From assembly GCA_016617855.1 (NCBI GenBank), contig JAECUM010003262.1:1-64000 (forward strand): a stretch of DNA of 64,000 nucleotides. Direction: 5' to 3'. How positions within the stretch are numbered: the stretch's first letter is position 1; every line of letters begins with the position of its first letter. A program made the position numbers and the translations under genes. Origin of the DNA: Megalonaias nervosa (Eukaryota > Mollusca > Bivalvia > Unionida > Unionidae). The notes beneath the pieces were generated by a model that was not told the DNA's origin, did not search any database, and saw only the letters and a program-made list of their open reading frames with translations. This document shows positions 4,007-64,000 of the stretch, piece after piece.

Positions 4007-55820
<51,814 letters not shown>

Positions 55821-58865: not shown

Positions 58866-58897
58866 GAGAGCATATGAAGATATAATGATATGCTCTC
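58866..58897. repeat. Perfect inverted repeat abutting the Polinton end
   Basis: GAGAGCATAT (58,866-58,875) and ATATGCTCTC (58,888-58,897), 12-base spacer. It ends exactly where the sequence beginning AGTAGTGTAG starts. Confidence 0.85.
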
Positions 58898-58907
58898 AGT
58901 AGTGTAG

Positions 58908-59067
58908 TGGGGTACTTTAGCGTCAATGGGAAAATACATTAGAGACCCCCCTTGGGGTACTATAGCGTCACGATTTTTGGCGTCAAAAAATCACCCTGGG
59001 GTACTTTAGCGTCAATGGGAATTTTGTATAGGGAACCACAGCCTGGGGTACTTTAGCGTCAACGGGA
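58908..59067 (+). repeat. Four iterated motifs at the Polinton terminus
   Basis: TGGGGTACTTTAGCGTCAAY starts at 58,908, 58,997 and 59,044, with a variant (TGGGGTACTATAGCGTCAC) at 58,953. Spacing is 44-47 bp. Most copies continue GGGA. A regular iteron-like array in a terminal repeat suggests protein-binding sites for replication or integration (inference). Confidence 0.9.
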
Positions 59068-59094
59068 ATTTAATATAGGGACAAGAGGAATGGT

Positions 59095-59170
59095 ACAGGT
59101 AAGGTGACGTCACGGTACTGGGCATTGGCAACAATGTAGCAATGTAGTACCGTGACGTCATGCCACCTGT
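59095..59170. repeat. Inverted repeat with TGACGTCA in both arms
   Basis: TGACGTCACGGTAC (59,105-59,118) and GTACCGTGACGTCA (59,147-59,160) are perfect 14-bp complements. An outer ACAGGT / ACCTGT pair lies at 59,095-59,100 and 59,165-59,170. Each arm contains TGACGTCA, the consensus for CREB/ATF bZIP factors. It lies between the iterons and gene A. Confidence 0.95.
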
Positions 59171-59278
59171 GTCATTTCTATATACAAACACGAATCATTC
59201 GCGTTCGTGTGAATAGTATAGTAGAGTATGTTTTATATATTAGCTTCTTTTTTTTTTTCCATTTTAGTGAGAATAAAT

Positions 59279-59289
59279 ATCTTTTCGTG
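59279..59289 (-). promoter_or_regulatory. Candidate histone downstream element, gene A
   Basis: Minus strand ACGAAAAGATA, 11 bases after the stem-loop. In replication-dependent histone genes a purine-rich element at this position pairs with U7 snRNA. Confidence 0.45.
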
Positions 59290-59300
59290 GCATATGAAGT

Positions 59301-59316
59301 GGCCCTGAAAAGGGCC
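59301..59316 (-). terminator. Histone-type 3' stem-loop, gene A
   Basis: Minus strand GGCCCTTTTCAGGGCC: a 6-bp stem with loop TTTC, preceded by CCCAAA and followed by AC. This fits the replication-dependent histone mRNA stem-loop in stem length, loop, and CCAAA / AC flanks. It begins 16 bases after the gene A stop codon. Confidence 0.85.
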
Positions 59317-59332
59317 TTTGGGTTTTTGTCGT

Positions 59333-59869
59333 CTATTTTCTCCACTTCTTTAACCAGTTTCTCACTTTTCCAATGATTCCTTTCTTCTTCTTCTTTTTTT
59401 CATCCTCTGGAATCCAATCTGGATGTCCCATTGATCTAAATTTTTCCTGTATTTTCATCCAGTTGCTGTTCAGTCTCTCAAAGTCCTCTTTTCTCTTTAT
59501 GTTTTCTTTGTCCTTCCTCTCTTTTGACCAGGTGTCTTTGATTTTCCTCACTTCTTCGTCCATCACCTTTCTCATGAGGTCTTCTGCTTTTTTTAACTGG
59601 TCTAACCCCCAATGGATAAAAGACCACTCTGTCAAATGGAATATCTCTTGCAAAAAACACCTCACTTTGATGACAACATCAAGGGCCTCCTTCAACGTCC
59701 CCACTCTTACATATTTAGGATCGATGAAGCCTCTTAATTTCTCTACTTCCTCTTCTATCATCCTTTGTATTTGATCCCTGGCTACTTTCAGGCTGTTCGC
59801 AAAGTCTAGACTGCCTGGGAACCTCCATTCCTGTTGAAGTCTTTCTACCACATAGGCTCCATCCACCAT
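59333..59869 (-). CDS. Polinton small gene A, charged helical protein of unknown function
   Basis: 178 codons from ATG 59,869 to TAG. The frame is open seven codons further up to a TAA. In the same frame, before that TAA, is a nine-codon open stretch from ATG 59,920, the first ATG after the TATA box. The protein is rich in Glu/Lys/Trp: KKAEDLMRKVMDEEVRKIKD forms a long helix and the tail is very basic (a run of six Lys, then GKVRNWLKKWRK). The AEDLMRKV / EEVRK pattern resembles AQDLIDEV / KEIKK in gene C. No signal peptide or membrane segment. TATA at 59,964-59,973 and stem-loop at 59,301-59,316 frame the gene. The start is uncertain and the gene may be damaged at its 5' end. Confidence 0.65.
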   Translation of the reverse strand: MVDGAYVVERLQQEWRFPGSLDFANSLKVARDQIQRMIEEEVEKLRGFIDPKYVRVGTLKEALDVVIKVRCFLQEIFHLTEWSFIHWGLDQLKKAEDLMRKVMDEEVRKIKDTWSKERKDKENIKRKEDFERLNSNWMKIQEKFRSMGHPDWIPEDEKKKKKKGIIGKVRNWLKKWRK

Positions 59870-59963
59870 CCAGAACCAACTATGTCTCAATTAGTTAAAC
59901 AAGTTCATGTTGCCAGCCATTTTTTATGTTCTGTGTAGAATGGCGCGAATGACGAACGCAATG

Positions 59964-60005
59964 CTTTTATATACTTCAAGCACGGACGTGAAGGAAAACA
60001 TCCCT
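59964..60005 (-). promoter_or_regulatory. Gene A promoter: shared upstream element plus TATA
   Basis: On the minus strand GGGATGTTTTCCTTCACGTC then CGTGC (60,005-59,980), six bases, then TATATAAAAG (59,973-59,964). The same element precedes genes B and C. Gene A lacks the GTTGACnnGTCAAC palindrome seen downstream of TATA in B and C. Confidence 0.8.
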
Positions 60006-60025
60006 TACACTCAGTTCACATATTA

Positions 60026-60246
60026 TCTACTATCCACACAATCGGGAAGAGAAGAAAAAAACACACATATCTACTATCCACACAATCGGGATGAGAAGAA
60101 AAAACATATCTACTATCCACACAATCGGGATGAGAAGAAAAAACACACATATCTACTATCCACACAATCGGGAAGAGAAGAAAAAAAACACACATATCTA
60201 CTATCTACACAATCGGGATGAGAAGAAAAAACACATATCTACTATC
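60026..60246. repeat. Minisatellite, 6 copies of about 39-45 bp
   Basis: TCTACTATCC starts at 60,026, 60,070, 60,109, 60,152, 60,197 and 60,238. Each full unit continues ACACAATCGGGA(T/A)GAGAA and an A-run with ACAC. It sits immediately upstream of the gene A promoter element. Confidence 0.95.
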
Positions 60247-60356
60247 CTCACAAACGTACGCGAACGCAAAACACACACACACACACACAACAGTAAAGGA
60301 GTGAGTGTTTATAGTCACACTACTCTACATTCACACAAATTGGCAACTTGAATAGA

Positions 60357-60370
60357 CTCTCTTTTCTAGA
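60357..60370 (-). promoter_or_regulatory. Candidate histone downstream element, gene B
   Basis: Minus strand TCTAGAAAAGAGAG, 9 bases after the stem-loop. The same block (CTCTAGAAATGAG) occurs at the same distance after gene C. Confidence 0.55.
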
Positions 60371-60379
60371 GATTTGGTT

Positions 60380-60395
60380 AGCCCTGAGAAGGGCG
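60380..60395 (-). terminator. Histone-type 3' stem-loop, gene B
   Basis: Minus strand CGCCCTTCTCAGGGCT: a 5-bp GCCCT/AGGGC stem with loop TCTC; the outermost pair is lost. Followed by AACC. Weaker than the other two but in the same relative place. Confidence 0.65.
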
Positions 60396-60593
60396 TTGTT
60401 TTTTTTTTTTTGAACTCAAAATGCACCTGGTTAATGATGACATCTTCCAGGGCGGGCACCACACACGCATCGCCGGCTGCAATCATTTTCCCAATTAATA
60501 AGTATGGTTCCGAGCGCAGAGGGAGCTTGAGTGGCCTCATGATCCCAGTTTTCAGTCTGAGGGATAGTGAAGACTTGTTCTCTCTGTCTTCTC

Positions 60594-60989
60594 CTATGCC
60601 AGACCCGGGGATGGTGAGGTCTCTGCGGCTCCCACTCTTGCCGCTGTCTCTCCAACTCCTCCAAGAACCTCCTGCTCCCAATTTTCAATTTGAGGGACAG
60701 CGTCTCTCGGTCGTTGTGGTGCTGGTAATGGTTGTGGTACTGGTAGTGGCTGCGGTGCTGGTACTGACTGTGGAGGTGTCCTCACCTCAGGCTTCACCTC
60801 ACACTGAGGCCTCATGATCAGGTGTGGCAGGATCCTTTCCTTCTCCTTTTCTTTCTTTTTCTTCTCCTCCTCCTCTATTCTGTCTTTCTCCGCTATGGCC
60901 TCCATAGCCAGTTCGTCTAAAAGACGCCTGGCATATTCCAGGTGCATTTGGAGCTCCAACAATGTGGCTAATCTGCTGCTCATCTTCAT
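60594..60989 (-). CDS. Polinton small gene B, coiled-coil protein, probably frameshifted
   Basis: 131 codons from ATG 60,989. The N-terminus MKMSSRLATL matches gene C's MTMPSRLAQL. Next comes a helix ARRLLDELAMEAIAEKDRIE, a Glu/Lys-only stretch, and a Pro/Gln repeat (PVPQPLPAPQ). The frame stops at 60,594, about 200 bases before the stem-loop. The other two frames carry the remaining open sequence, one with RSEPYL..GDA that resembles RSRPYR..GDA near gene C's end. A block is duplicated 133 bp apart (60,541 and 60,674), which itself shifts frame. The present gene probably has a frame lesion; an alternative is a genuinely short protein with a long 3' UTR. Confidence 0.6.
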   Translation of the reverse strand: MKMSSRLATLLELQMHLEYARRLLDELAMEAIAEKDRIEEEEKKKKEKEKERILPHLIMRPQCEVKPEVRTPPQSVPAPQPLPVPQPLPAPQRPRDAVPQIENWEQEVLGGVGETAARVGAAETSPSPGLA

Positions 60990-60993
60990 CGAA

Positions 60994-61075
60994 GTTGACT
61001 AGTCAACAATGATAGCCAGACCGACAATTGTGCCACTTTATATTCATGGAGCACGGACATGAAGGAAAACATCCC
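60994..61075 (-). promoter_or_regulatory. Gene B promoter: upstream element, TATA, palindrome
   Basis: Minus strand: GGGATGTTTTCCTTCATGTC + CGTGC (61,075-61,051), TATAAA (61,042-61,037), then a perfect 14-bp palindrome GTTGACTAGTCAAC (61,007-60,994) whose first base is 35 bases from the first TATA base, about where transcription should begin. The ATG follows 4 bases later. Confidence 0.85.
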
Positions 61076-61297
61076 TGACACCAAAATTTACAATACCACT
61101 ATTACCATCACATGAAACGCGCGGACCTAAAAGAAGCACTCAGGTTGACTTTTTTACTTATAAACACAGACATGCACGATTTGACAAGACAGAGACAACA
61201 AAGGATGGATTTTTTACTGACAAAAGAAACGAAGTGCTTATAGACACACTTCTATTTATTTTTTAAATTTTAAAAGTTTTGGCAATTGAATTAGTAT

Positions 61298-61309
61298 CTC
61301 ATTTCTAGA
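61298..61309 (-). promoter_or_regulatory. Candidate histone downstream element, gene C
   Basis: Minus strand TCTAGAAATGAG, 9 bases beyond the stem-loop and matching the gene B block at 11 of 12 positions. Confidence 0.5.
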
Positions 61310-61318
61310 GTATTGTTT

Positions 61319-61334
61319 AGCCCTGAAAAGGACT
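61319..61334 (-). terminator. Histone-type 3' stem-loop, gene C
   Basis: Minus strand AGTCCTTTTCAGGGCT: a 6-bp stem with one T-G wobble and loop TTTC, preceded by an A-rich stretch and followed by AAAC. It starts 15 bases after the gene C stop codon, almost the gene A spacing. Confidence 0.8.
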
Positions 61335-61349
61335 GTTTTTTTTTTTATG

Positions 61350-61736
61350 TTAACGGGAGTAATGGCAATCTTTTTTACTGTCTAAGATTGCGTCCCCGTC
61401 TGGCGATATACGATACGGTCTGCTTCTGCGGAAAGAGAAAGAGAATTCCTTGGTGTCTACTCGACAGTCCACAAAACCTCTGTCTGGTTCTTGCTGTTGC
61501 TGCTGTTGTTGCTGCTGTTGTTCTTCTCTCTGCTTCTTCTGAAGTCTGTACATCTCAGTCCATTCTTCTTGTTCTTTCTTGATTTCCTTTCTGAAGACCT
61601 CATCTATTAGGTCTTGGGCTATAGCTAACATCCTGACATTCTCTATCTCTTCAGGTTTAGGTATCAGGTTTAGCCTGACACGATGTAAACTGACGTAAGC
61701 TTCGTTCAGCTGGGCTAGTCTGGAAGGCATGGTCAT
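61350..61736 (-). CDS. Polinton small gene C, helical protein with polyglutamine
   Basis: 128 codons from ATG 61,736 to TAA. This start is chosen over in-frame 61,796 because the TATA box at 61,783-61,788 would put transcription start near 61,755, and because MTMPSRLAQL matches gene B's N-terminus. Layout: short N-terminal motif; helix NVRMLAIAQDLIDEVFRKEI; Lys/Glu/Gln coiled region; ten Gln in a row; basic C-terminal region FSFSFRRSRPYR and GDAILDSKKD. No domain recognised. Paralogy to A and B is inferred from the aligned helix pattern. No lesion seen, so this is the best-preserved cassette member. Confidence 0.75.
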   Translation of the reverse strand: MTMPSRLAQLNEAYVSLHRVRLNLIPKPEEIENVRMLAIAQDLIDEVFRKEIKKEQEEWTEMYRLQKKQREEQQQQQQQQQQEPDRGFVDCRVDTKEFSFSFRRSRPYRISPDGDAILDSKKDCHYSR

Positions 61737-61738
61737 AG

Positions 61739-61821
61739 GTTGACGAGTCAACAGTGGATGGTCAAACTGGAGACCAACCCGCTTTATATGGTTCAAACGC
61801 GGACGCGATAGAAAACATCCC
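61739..61821 (-). promoter_or_regulatory. Gene C promoter: upstream element, TATA, palindrome
   Basis: Minus strand: GGGATGTTTTC, a diverged middle, GTCCGCG (61,821-61,797), then TATAAA (61,788-61,783), then GTTGACTCGTCAAC (61,752-61,739; one central mismatch to a palindrome). TATA-to-palindrome distance is 36 bases, against 35 in gene B. Confidence 0.83.
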
Positions 61822-61954
61822 TACTCGGTTTTAGTGTCGGAACGTTATGATAGCTTATGTCATGGTGAGGGATAGAGAGAAAGTCAAAGAGCATATATTC
61901 ACAATGTTTTTGAAAACAAACAACAGACACATTTTTTTTCAAAACACAACATTT

Positions 61955-61960
61955 TTTATT
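61955..61960 (-). terminator. AATAAA poly(A) signal after the protease gene
   Basis: Minus strand AATAAA, 46 bases after the protease stop. A GTAACAA triplet repeat (three copies, about 61,969-61,990 on plus) lies in between. The capsid-to-protease genes thus end with an ordinary poly(A) signal, unlike the three small genes. Confidence 0.75.
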
Positions 61961-62005: not shown

Positions 62006-62563
62006 TTATTTTTGACAAGGTTGACAACGTTGTGAAATCATGTGAGATTTCCATTGATGGATGTCATGAGGCCATTGATGTACACTACGTTTCCTAGCTA
62101 AAGACAAAAGATAACCATAATGGTCACAAAACCATCGATCTACTTTCTCATCGTTTCTAGAAGAGTGACAATCAAAATAAGTCACTACATGTTCTAAAGG
62201 ATATCCAAGACTGCGTTGATGAAGAAAATACACACAATATTGCCCACACACCATGGAATCTGTGCCTTGTAATTTCACATTATTGTATCGTGTCGTCTGT
62301 TCATTTCTTCTCATAAAGTCAATGATATCCTATTCCAAAGGGGGTAATCCATACGAATCAAAATATTCCACACAATCCTCTTGAGGGAAGTAGACGGCAA
62401 ACCAGTGAGTTCCTGGGAGATGACTTTCGTCCGTGTTGATGACATAAGCTTGATCGCCTTGAGGTTTGCGATGAGGTAGTTCATCTTTAGCGCACACGAC
62501 AGGATTCCAAGAAGCAATATACGAACTATTGTTCAAAAGGTAATAAAGTTCCCAGGTATCCAT
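62006..62563 (-). pseudogene. Polinton adenovirus-type cysteine protease (C5/adenain-like), one in-frame TAG
   Basis: Reads from ATG 62,563 through GTHWFAVYF (catalytic His) and FDSYGLPPLE (acidic residue) to a TAG at 62,332-62,330. The same frame resumes for about 107 codons containing MVCGQYCVYF, with the Gln and catalytic Cys, and ends at 62,006. This His-Asp/Glu-Gln-Cys order is that of the protease that matures Polinton and adenovirus capsids, acting on capsid precursors. Total length, about 185 codons, is normal. It starts 19 bases after the upstream gene's stop codon. The TAG separates His from Cys, so the product is inactive unless the stop is read through or is a sequencing error. 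Confidence 0.87.
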
Positions 62564-62582
62564 TTTTTGTTTTGTTGTTTTT

Positions 62583-63094: not shown

Positions 63095-64000
63095 CTAATA
63101 GTCTAGAATGACTTCTCTCAAACTGTTGATTTCGATGGTATTATCGAATTCGGCATACAAGATGACGTTGACCGTCTCGGTGAGCGCTTCTGCAAACTGA
63201 AGTTCCACACGCAGTTGACCCGATTTTATAGGGTGGAAATGTCCCTCGTCGCTACCTTGGTCTGGAGTGAAATCAAAGGCCCACAAAGTGTAACCTCCGA
63301 CATAATCTTGGTACGAAATACCGTGACTCGCGTTGGTTTATCTAGTTGCCCCGTAGCTTCGTACAGGGACAAGTACGATCTCAAGTAATTCTTCTGGGCA
63401 AAGGTAGGTTCAAAGGGTCTGGTACACAAAGTCTTGCCATCGCGACTGACTTCGATCTTGGACACTCTGTAGTGCTTAAACTGGAAAGGATTTTGATCGT
63501 GGGCTCCGTTGAGGGCTGAATTACTGACGATGCCAACGATTAAACGTTTGGGTAACTGTCCTTGGAACAGATGATCTTCGATCTTGGATCGGAGTCCAGC
63601 AGCAATGGTGAATGTTTTCACTTCTACACGTCGTATTGGATACTTGGCGGTCGATCTGCTCAATGTTTGACTGATGTCGTTTCCCGCTTTAGGTAACACT
63701 TCTACACGACGCACGTAAAGTCTGGCTTCTTGGATGATGGCTTTGTACTCGTTGGCATGAGCCATCAAATGGAAAGCGACACTGCTGCGATTGAGTCTCA
63801 GGCGAATATCCACTCCGTTCAGCAAATACTTGTCTTGCAACCACATGTCCAAATGCAAACGATCCATCAGTTCTAAATTACGACCTTGCAGGATTTTCCT
63901 TCGACGGTTGTTAAAACCCACATTGTGAGAATTGTCATCTGCTGTCAGGGCTGTGTCGTTAAACGTGTCTTCACCTGCGGTGTCAGGTTTCCATACCACG
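63095..64000 (-). pseudogene. Polinton major capsid protein, C-terminal part, frameshifted
   Basis: The frame is open from the right window edge to 63,226 and holds the bulk of the visible protein (for example LHLDMWLQDKYLLNGVDI and FKHYRVSKIEV). True similarity changes frame near 63,337-63,343. From there GYTLWAFDFTPD, SGQLRVELQF and ETVNVILYAEFDNTIEI run in another frame to the stop at 63,095. This ending is that of the double-jelly-roll capsid protein of animal Polintons, often annotated as 'F54H12.2-like'. The shift is one base. The N-terminal part lies outside the window. It is the first gene of the capsid / zinc-ligand / protease set. Confidence 0.83.

What the first reader, a model, noticed from the sequence alone, without database searches (positions are those of the whole stretch)
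59279..61334. Histone-type 3' ends on three consecutive transposon genes
Seen: after each of genes A, B and C lies a stem-loop of replication-dependent histone-mRNA form (GGCCCTTTTCAGGGCC after A; AGTCCTTTTCAGGGCT after C with a G-T wobble that keeps pairing; a weaker form after B). They start 15-16 bases after the stop in A and C. A purine-rich block follows 9-11 bases later, where U7 snRNA binds in histone genes. Known: this signal pair marks metazoan S-phase histone mRNAs, bound by SLBP and not polyadenylated. Inference: the element ties these genes to host S phase, while its capsid-type genes use AATAAA. I know of no report of this in Polintons.
Basis: partly seen in the sequence, partly recalled or inferred. 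Interest (0 to 1): 0.88.

Follow-up and report, generated by a model that had tools for sequence, protein, structure and literature searches.

The report
Polinton genes with histone-type mRNA ends
A very abundant virus-like transposon in an animal genome ends five of its own genes with the stem-loop signal that a host histone gene uses, which suggests that the element borrows the host's histone RNA-processing machinery.

Summary
The window element is a 15.7-kb Polinton (6-bp target-site duplication, about 430-bp inverted repeats, integrase, ATPase, capsid gene). Not three but five of its genes end in a histone-type stem-loop: A, B and C at one end, E and F at the other; those of A and F sit at the inner edges of the terminal repeats. 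Rfam scores A 39.5 and F 39.1 bits; a host H2A.X-like gene scores 37.8 and has the same 16-base hairpin and the same downstream GAAAAGAT. The host has an SLBP gene and a weak U7 snRNA candidate complementary to that core. Of 69 copies of A found by protein, 68 keep the hairpin; in 38 diverged copies median dS is 0.51 but mean hairpin divergence 0.05. The neighbouring protease gene has AATAAA and no hairpin in 7 of 7 copies read. The genome holds 4,794 exact hairpin-plus-core sites (reversed pattern: 0). Best reading: these mRNAs are cleaved by U7 snRNP, bound by SLBP and not polyadenylated, which would tie them to S phase. Processing, missing poly(A) and timing are inferred; no RNA data were available. 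Five other capsid-bearing contigs lack the signal. The papers listed in seven searches report nothing of the kind.

The parts
58892..58897 (.). 6-bp target-site duplication GCTCTC (the other copy is at C2738:74560-74565, outside the window)
58898..59326 (.). left terminal inverted repeat; its inner edge holds the A hairpin; the right copy is L082 1121-1559
   Evidence: (94.8% identity)
59279..59286 (-). purine core GAAAAGAT, 14 nt after the A stem
59301..59316 (-). histone-type stem-loop of gene A
   Evidence: RF00032, 39.5 bits at 59275-59321
59333..59869 (-). gene A, 178-aa open frame; the N-terminal part seen in relatives lies beyond a stop in this copy
59966..60010 (-). shared promoter-like repeat with TATA box upstream of A
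60359..60366 (-). purine core GAAAAGAG, 13 nt after the B stem
60380..60395 (-). histone-type stem-loop of gene B, 5 of 6 pairs in this copy
60594..60989 (-). gene B, 131-aa open frame in this copy
61037..61081 (-). shared promoter-like repeat upstream of B
61298..61305 (-). purine core after the C stem, altered in this copy (GAAATGAG)
61319..61334 (-). histone-type stem-loop of gene C, one U-G pair
61350..61736 (-). gene C, 128-aa open frame, apparent paralogue of B
61783..61827 (-). shared promoter-like repeat upstream of C
61955..61960 (-). AATAAA after the protease gene (neighbouring gene with the ordinary poly(A) signal)
62006..62566 (-). Polinton cysteine protease gene (recognised by eye, no Pfam match), one in-frame stop in this copy
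63226..64000 (-). part of the Polinton major capsid gene (F54H12.2-like), frame broken in this copy; the element runs on to C2738:74559 with integrase, ATPase and the hairpin genes E and F

Best explanation
Five small genes of this Polinton family (A, B, C near the left end; E, F near the right end) form their mRNA 3' ends as host replication-dependent histone genes do. Shown here: each is followed on its sense strand by a 6-bp stem with a 4-base loop and a purine core; A and F carry theirs inside the terminal repeats; the A hairpin and core are conserved across many copies; the neighbouring protease gene has AATAAA instead. Inferred: SLBP binds the hairpin, U7 snRNP pairs with the core and CPSF73 cuts between them, giving mRNAs without poly(A) tails. 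Inferred one step further: these mRNAs are stable and translated mainly in S phase, when the DNA-copying machinery is at hand, so that the element has two gene classes separated by 3'-end type, histone-like genes near the ends and polyadenylated genes in the middle.
For: RF00032 above gathering for A (39.5 bits) and F (39.1); 26.9 for E. Host H2A.X-like gene: identical 16-base hairpin and GAAAAGAT core, 37.8 bits. 68 of 69 A copies found by protein search keep the hairpin, with the core 14 nt on in 60 of 69. 38 diverged copies: median dS 0.51, dN/dS 0.22, mean hairpin distance 0.049, core 0.039; 30 close copies: hairpin 0.037, core 0.013. In 34 copies under 80% identity the majority identity is 0.94 in the hairpin, 0.93 in the next 30 nt, 0.80 at 46-66 nt and 0.54 at 66-100 nt from the hairpin start. 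48 distinct aligned hairpins: 99% of cells paired against at most 66% when slid; closing pair G-C 33, A-U 14. SLBP domain in two pieces on one contig. Protease copies: AATAAA 41-48 nt past the stop and no hairpin in 7 of 7 read. 4,794 exact sites, reversed control 0.
Against: No RNA data. The U7 candidate scores 21.2 bits, below gathering 34, is outscored in its own 501-base stretch by three chance-level miRNA models, folds no better than shuffles as a whole (z -0.45), and was sought with a pattern taken from the core that has no more hits than its control (232 against 223); the window's own C and F cores pair with it no better than shuffles (p 0.13, 0.14). Stem variation is small: the number of pairs with two-sided change (2) is reached by 135 of 500 shuffles and the number of pair types (5) by 500 of 500. 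C has an AATAAA about 58 nt past its hairpin. The last 60 coding nt of A are also well conserved (0.91). The A and F hairpins lie in terminal repeats, where a DNA-level function could conserve them. Five capsid-bearing contigs from elsewhere lack the signal.
Confidence: 0.87

Rival explanations
1. The hairpin is a DNA element of the terminal repeats (replication origin, terminal-protein or integrase site) that merely looks like a histone signal.
For: The A and F hairpins lie at the inner edge of the inverted repeats; 14 outward-facing pairs and no inward one at 14-21 kb among the first 100 listed sites.
Against: B, C and E have it outside the repeats; in the window element all five lie on the sense strand after a gene; conservation falls off past the core although the repeat goes on; a host histone-type gene has the same hairpin and core.
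Confidence: 0.05
2. A host histone 3' end was captured once by an ancestor and has been copied along passively, without use.
For: Identity of the 16-base hairpin and the core to the host H2A.X-like gene; high copy number; B and C 3' ends are a duplication.
Against: Hairpin and core stay at the level of young-copy decay while synonymous sites reach 0.51; five genes carry it at the expected place; the protease gene has kept AATAAA.
Confidence: 0.03
3. The hairpin serves only as an SLBP-binding site for stability or translation in polyadenylated or read-through transcripts, or as a sponge for SLBP, without U7 cleavage.
For: C has a downstream AATAAA; a human histone gene is known to use either 3' end (PMC9756948, passages).
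Against: The core is conserved as well as the hairpin at 14 nt spacing in 60 of 69 A copies, which a mere SLBP site would not need.
Confidence: 0.05

Closest known systems
Metazoan replication-dependent histone mRNA 3' end (Rfam RF00032 plus histone downstream element)
   Same: 6-bp stem, 4-base loop, CCAAA-type 5' flank in A and F, ACCCA-type 3' flank in intact C and many E copies, purine core 13-14 nt on; same hairpin and core as the host H2A.X-like gene.
   Different: The genes are not histones; they belong to a transposon; A and F carry the signal inside terminal inverted repeats.
Polinton/Maverick elements (and adintoviruses)
   Same: Terminal repeats, 6-bp target-site duplication, rve integrase with chromodomain, A32-like ATPase, capsid gene, protease.
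   Different: Histone-type 3' ends on five small genes; not found in five other capsid-bearing contigs nor in the papers listed by my searches.
Host genes with dual histone/poly(A) 3' ends (human H2AC18, PMC9756948, passages only)
   Same: Hairpin and core with a poly(A) signal near by, as after gene C.
   Different: There one histone gene can use either end; here the two signals sit on different neighbouring genes, apart from C.

Membership tests
Polinton/Maverick | terminal inverted repeats and 6-bp target-site duplication | tested here: met
   440-column match of the two ends, 94.8% identity; GCTCTC on both sides
Polinton/Maverick | retroviral-type integrase | tested here: met
   rve 42.8 bits, cut-off 32.6; chromodomain 27.8, cut-off 25.1
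Polinton/Maverick | packaging ATPase | tested here: met
   Pox_A32 32.4 bits, cut-off 22.8
Polinton/Maverick | major capsid protein | tested here: met
   138 relatives, named ones F54H12.2-like; no Pfam family above cut-off
Polinton/Maverick | adenovirus-type cysteine protease | tested here: inconclusive
   no Pfam match; similar frames follow the capsid gene in L016, L018 and L019; named by eye
Polinton/Maverick | protein-primed DNA polymerase B | tested here: inconclusive
   one 215-aa frame in the expected place, no Pfam match
Replication-dependent histone 3' end | 6-bp stem, 4-base loop, conserved flanks (RF00032) | tested here: met
   A and F above gathering; E 26.9, B 18.3, C 16.6 bits below it in this element
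Replication-dependent histone 3' end | purine downstream element complementary to U7 | tested here: inconclusive
   core present and conserved; pairs with the U7 candidate better than shuffles in 43 of 49, but the candidate is weak and was sought with the core
Replication-dependent histone 3' end | SLBP present in the host | tested here: met
   PF15247 at 67.6 and 39.5 bits on C954
Replication-dependent histone 3' end | transcripts without poly(A), SLBP-bound, S-phase limited | not testable with these tools
   needs RNA and cell data
Replication-dependent histone gene | encodes a histone | tested here: not met
   no histone family in Pfam for A, B, C or E; F was not scanned; none of the 30 best hairpin loci matched the typed histones

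The most novel reading that the evidence does not exclude
A virus-like transposon has made the host's histone mRNA pathway into its own gene-class switch: the genes near both ends are expressed as histone-type mRNAs during S phase, the inner genes by poly(A). With thousands of copies, the element's signals far outnumber the histone genes found in this assembly and could draw on the host's SLBP and U7 snRNP.
Probability: 0.55. Interest if true: 0.93.

Novelty: new variant of a known kind. Interest (0 to 1): 0.87.

Why it matters
Histone-type 3' ends are, as far as I recall, nearly confined to replication-dependent histone genes. A mobile element that uses them on five non-histone genes would be a new way for a virus-like element to follow the host cell cycle, and a natural test of what the signal does outside histone genes. 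It also warns that RF00032 hits in animal genomes may mark transposons: 28 of the 30 best hits in this genome fall into groups of loci related to this element.

Tried and rejected
IMG/VR was scanned for the hairpin (15 stretches; cmscan of 14 of the 15 found no RF00032 match), for hairpin plus core (0), and for the capsid and A proteins (no relative). GTDB contigs: none with A, five with capsid relatives, no RF00032 match at gathering score in those five. Rfam U7 search of the whole genome: nothing, with empty controls, so uninformative. L039 and L042 have good hairpins without a recognised gene. H2B-like fragments L122 and L124 show no hairpin of the kind sought in 0.8-0.9 kb. Structure of an A relative (P0121): all-helical, mean pLDDT 77.7, no function suggested. 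One search failed and was rerun; one search contained a stray one-base row and was replaced.
Full report
What was checked. In the window, the only gathering-level Rfam match is RF00032 after gene A, 59275-59321 minus, 39.5 bits; with a relaxed threshold the sites after B and C give 18.3 and 16.6 bits. Stems start 16 nt (A), 15 nt (C) and 198 nt (B) after the stop of the open frame in this copy.

The element. The window is G000:C2738:1-64000 of an unnamed 2.19-Gb assembly. Continuing along the contig in separate pieces shows the right end: the left terminal repeat (58897-59326 in the match) reappears inverted at L082 1121-1560 with 94.8% identity, and GCTCTC stands at both outer edges, so the element runs from 58898 to C2738:74559, 15,662 bp. 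It has an rve integrase, a chromodomain and an A32-like ATPase and an F54H12.2-type capsid gene (138 relatives, 120 listed, the named ones mostly oysters). A protease gene is recognised by eye and by similar frames after the capsid gene in L016, L018 and L019, without a Pfam match; DNA polymerase B was not confirmed by Pfam. I take this to be a Polinton. Several genes of this copy are broken: the N-terminal part of A, the protease (one stop) and the capsid gene (frame break). The host is probably a bivalve; this rests only on the nearest named capsid relatives.

Five genes, not three. Beyond the window, gene E (L082 104-643, minus) is followed by a hairpin at L081 8934-8979 (26.9 bits; stem 129 nt after the stop of E's frame in this copy), and gene F (L082 from 870, plus) by one at L082 1126-1172 (39.1 bits). 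E and F point away from each other. F's frame holds one stop in this copy. The A and F hairpins lie at the inner edges of the two terminal repeats, so both end genes read outward into nearly the same 3' end. Genome-wide the exact hairpin plus core occurs 4,794 times (2,363 forward, 2,431 reverse; reversed-pattern control 0). Among the first 100 sites listed, 14 pairs face outward at 14-21 kb and none inward, with one same-direction pair, as terminal repeats predict.

The host's own signal. A host H2A gene with an H2A.X-type C-terminus (label recalled; L123) ends in the identical 16-base hairpin, followed 12 nt later by GAAAAGAT (37.8 bits). Only this one host histone hairpin could be read: the histone family search gave 11 hits, best 72 bits, and four of the 11 regions were fetched, of which L122 and L124 (H2B-like) and L125 showed no such hairpin. 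None of the 30 best RF00032 loci matched the typed histones; 28 of 30 fall into three groups of related loci that include matches to A, B, E or F; L039 and L042 stand alone. RF00032 scored only 75 of 423,121 first-look candidates in this genome.

Conservation. A was searched by protein, without regard to RNA: 150 of 6,635 candidates were scored. I read the 3' flanks of 69 of these 150, the window copy included: the 30 best given as loci and 39 picked further down the list. 68 of 69 have a hairpin matching the host one in at least 13 of 16 bases (38 exactly); in L109 it is deleted; six pairs form in 48, five in 18, fewer in 3; 100 shuffles of each region never exceeded 12 of 16. Against the window copy, 38 diverged copies have median dS 0.51, dN 0.11 and dN/dS 0.22, but mean hairpin distance 0.049 and core distance 0.039 (L109 included); 30 close copies have dS 0.044, hairpin 0.037, core 0.013. 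Most hairpin change is therefore of the size that even young copies show. In 34 copies under 80% identity, majority identity is 0.91 in the last 60 coding nt, 0.74 in the spacer, 0.94 in the hairpin, 0.93 in the next 30 nt, 0.80 at 46-66 nt and 0.54 at 66-100 nt from the hairpin start. The hairpin was located by best match, which flatters its identity somewhat.

B, C and E in other copies. Of 30 A loci, 20 gave a B hairpin region; by inspection each has at least five of six pairs, mostly AGCCCTTCTCAGGGCT with flank AACCA and core GAAAAGAG. C was read in nine copies (six, three): eight have six pairs, L078 four. Intact C copies have the flank ACCCA, the histone-type one (recalled). An alignment of 49 hairpins (A 9, B 9, C 6, E 11, F 9, A-like G 4, host 1; a chosen set, part of it found by RF00032) gives 99% paired cells against at most 66% when slid, and 15 cells with two-sided change against 4.7 in shuffles. 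Against this, the number of pairs with two-sided change (2) is reached by 135 of 500 shuffles, pair types by all 500, and the main change, G-C in A, E, F to A-U in B, C, may be a single event. Covariation is supporting, not decisive.

U7 and SLBP. A pattern built from the core and a U7-type Sm site gave 232 hits, about as many as its control (223), so the count means nothing; but among the 100 listed is C1356:56946-56965, which resembles sea-urchin U7 (recalled) and is followed by a 7-bp hairpin. Rfam's U7 model picks the same spot at 21.2 bits, E 0.027 in 501 bases, below gathering and below three miRNA models in that stretch; the 82-nt region folds no better than shuffles. Its AUCUUUUC is the exact complement of GAAAAGAU; duplex energy beats shuffles at p<=0.05 in 43 of 49 downstream regions, but not for the window's own C and F copies, and the pattern choice makes this partly circular. 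In mouse the matching parts are CUCUUU in U7 and AAAGAG in the downstream element, and cleavage falls 5 nt (fly: 4) after the stem-loop (PMC7026596, passages). The host's SLBP RNA-binding domain is present in two pieces on C954, 67.6 and 39.5 bits.

The neighbouring gene as control. Eight regions expected to hold the protease 3' end were fetched; seven of eight could be read there, L130 could not. All seven have AATAAA 41-48 nt after the stop, and no stretch in the next 300 nt matches the hairpin in more than 11 of 16 bases. Hairpin genes and a poly(A)-signal gene thus lie side by side in one element. cmscan of the window, L081 and L082 found RF00032 only after A, B, C, E and F, although with different thresholds for the pieces. 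A, B and C also share an upstream repeat with a TATA box; its core was not found near E or F with up to one mismatch.

How far it reaches. Five capsid-bearing contigs in bacterial or symbiont genome bins (titles name a tubeworm for two and a deep-sea mussel for one) show no RF00032 match at gathering score and no A, B or C; E and F were not sought there. Relatives of A exist in metagenome contigs of about 0.6-1.1 kb (nine proteins) whose DNA could not be read. The signal was thus not found in other Polintons; its range beyond this genome is unknown.

Literature. Searches of the open PMC library for the histone stem-loop, SLBP, U7 or histone pre-mRNA together with Polinton, Maverick, adintovirus, transposon or virus terms: no paper holds both 'histone stem-loop' and 'Polinton', and none of the titles and abstract starts listed describes such 3' ends in a transposon or virus. 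Most listings were capped (20 of 143, 8 of 233, 8 of 390, 15 of 48, 20 of 21 papers). Passages were read only in PMC9756948 and PMC7026596. Most subscription papers are not in this library.

Verdict. The histone-type 3' ends are real; the A hairpin is conserved beyond synonymous sites, and five genes of a high-copy Polinton family carry one. That they work through SLBP and U7 is the best-supported reading; S-phase control is the natural but untested consequence.

Noticed in passing
L126:177-227 minus (G000:C1356): Weak candidate for the host U7 snRNA gene: Sm-type site AAGTTTCTCTAG and a 3' hairpin, Rfam 21.2 bits.
   Followed up: partly
L126:6-78: Long, nearly perfect hairpin beside the U7 candidate, perhaps a small inverted-repeat element.
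   Followed up: no
L014:13-80 and 5897-5960: Two type II hammerhead ribozymes on an IMG/VR contig (43.6 and 50.0 bits).
   Followed up: no
window 60024-60253: Tandem repeat of about 45 nt, 5.4 copies, between genes B and A.
   Followed up: no
window 59086-59179: Imperfect palindrome with TGACGTCA motifs inside the terminal repeat.
   Followed up: no
L039:1501-1546 and L042:1501-1546: Two strong histone-type hairpins without a recognised gene upstream.
   Followed up: partly
L122, L124: H2B-like fragments of the host genome without a histone stem-loop of the kind sought in 0.8-0.9 kb.
   Followed up: partly
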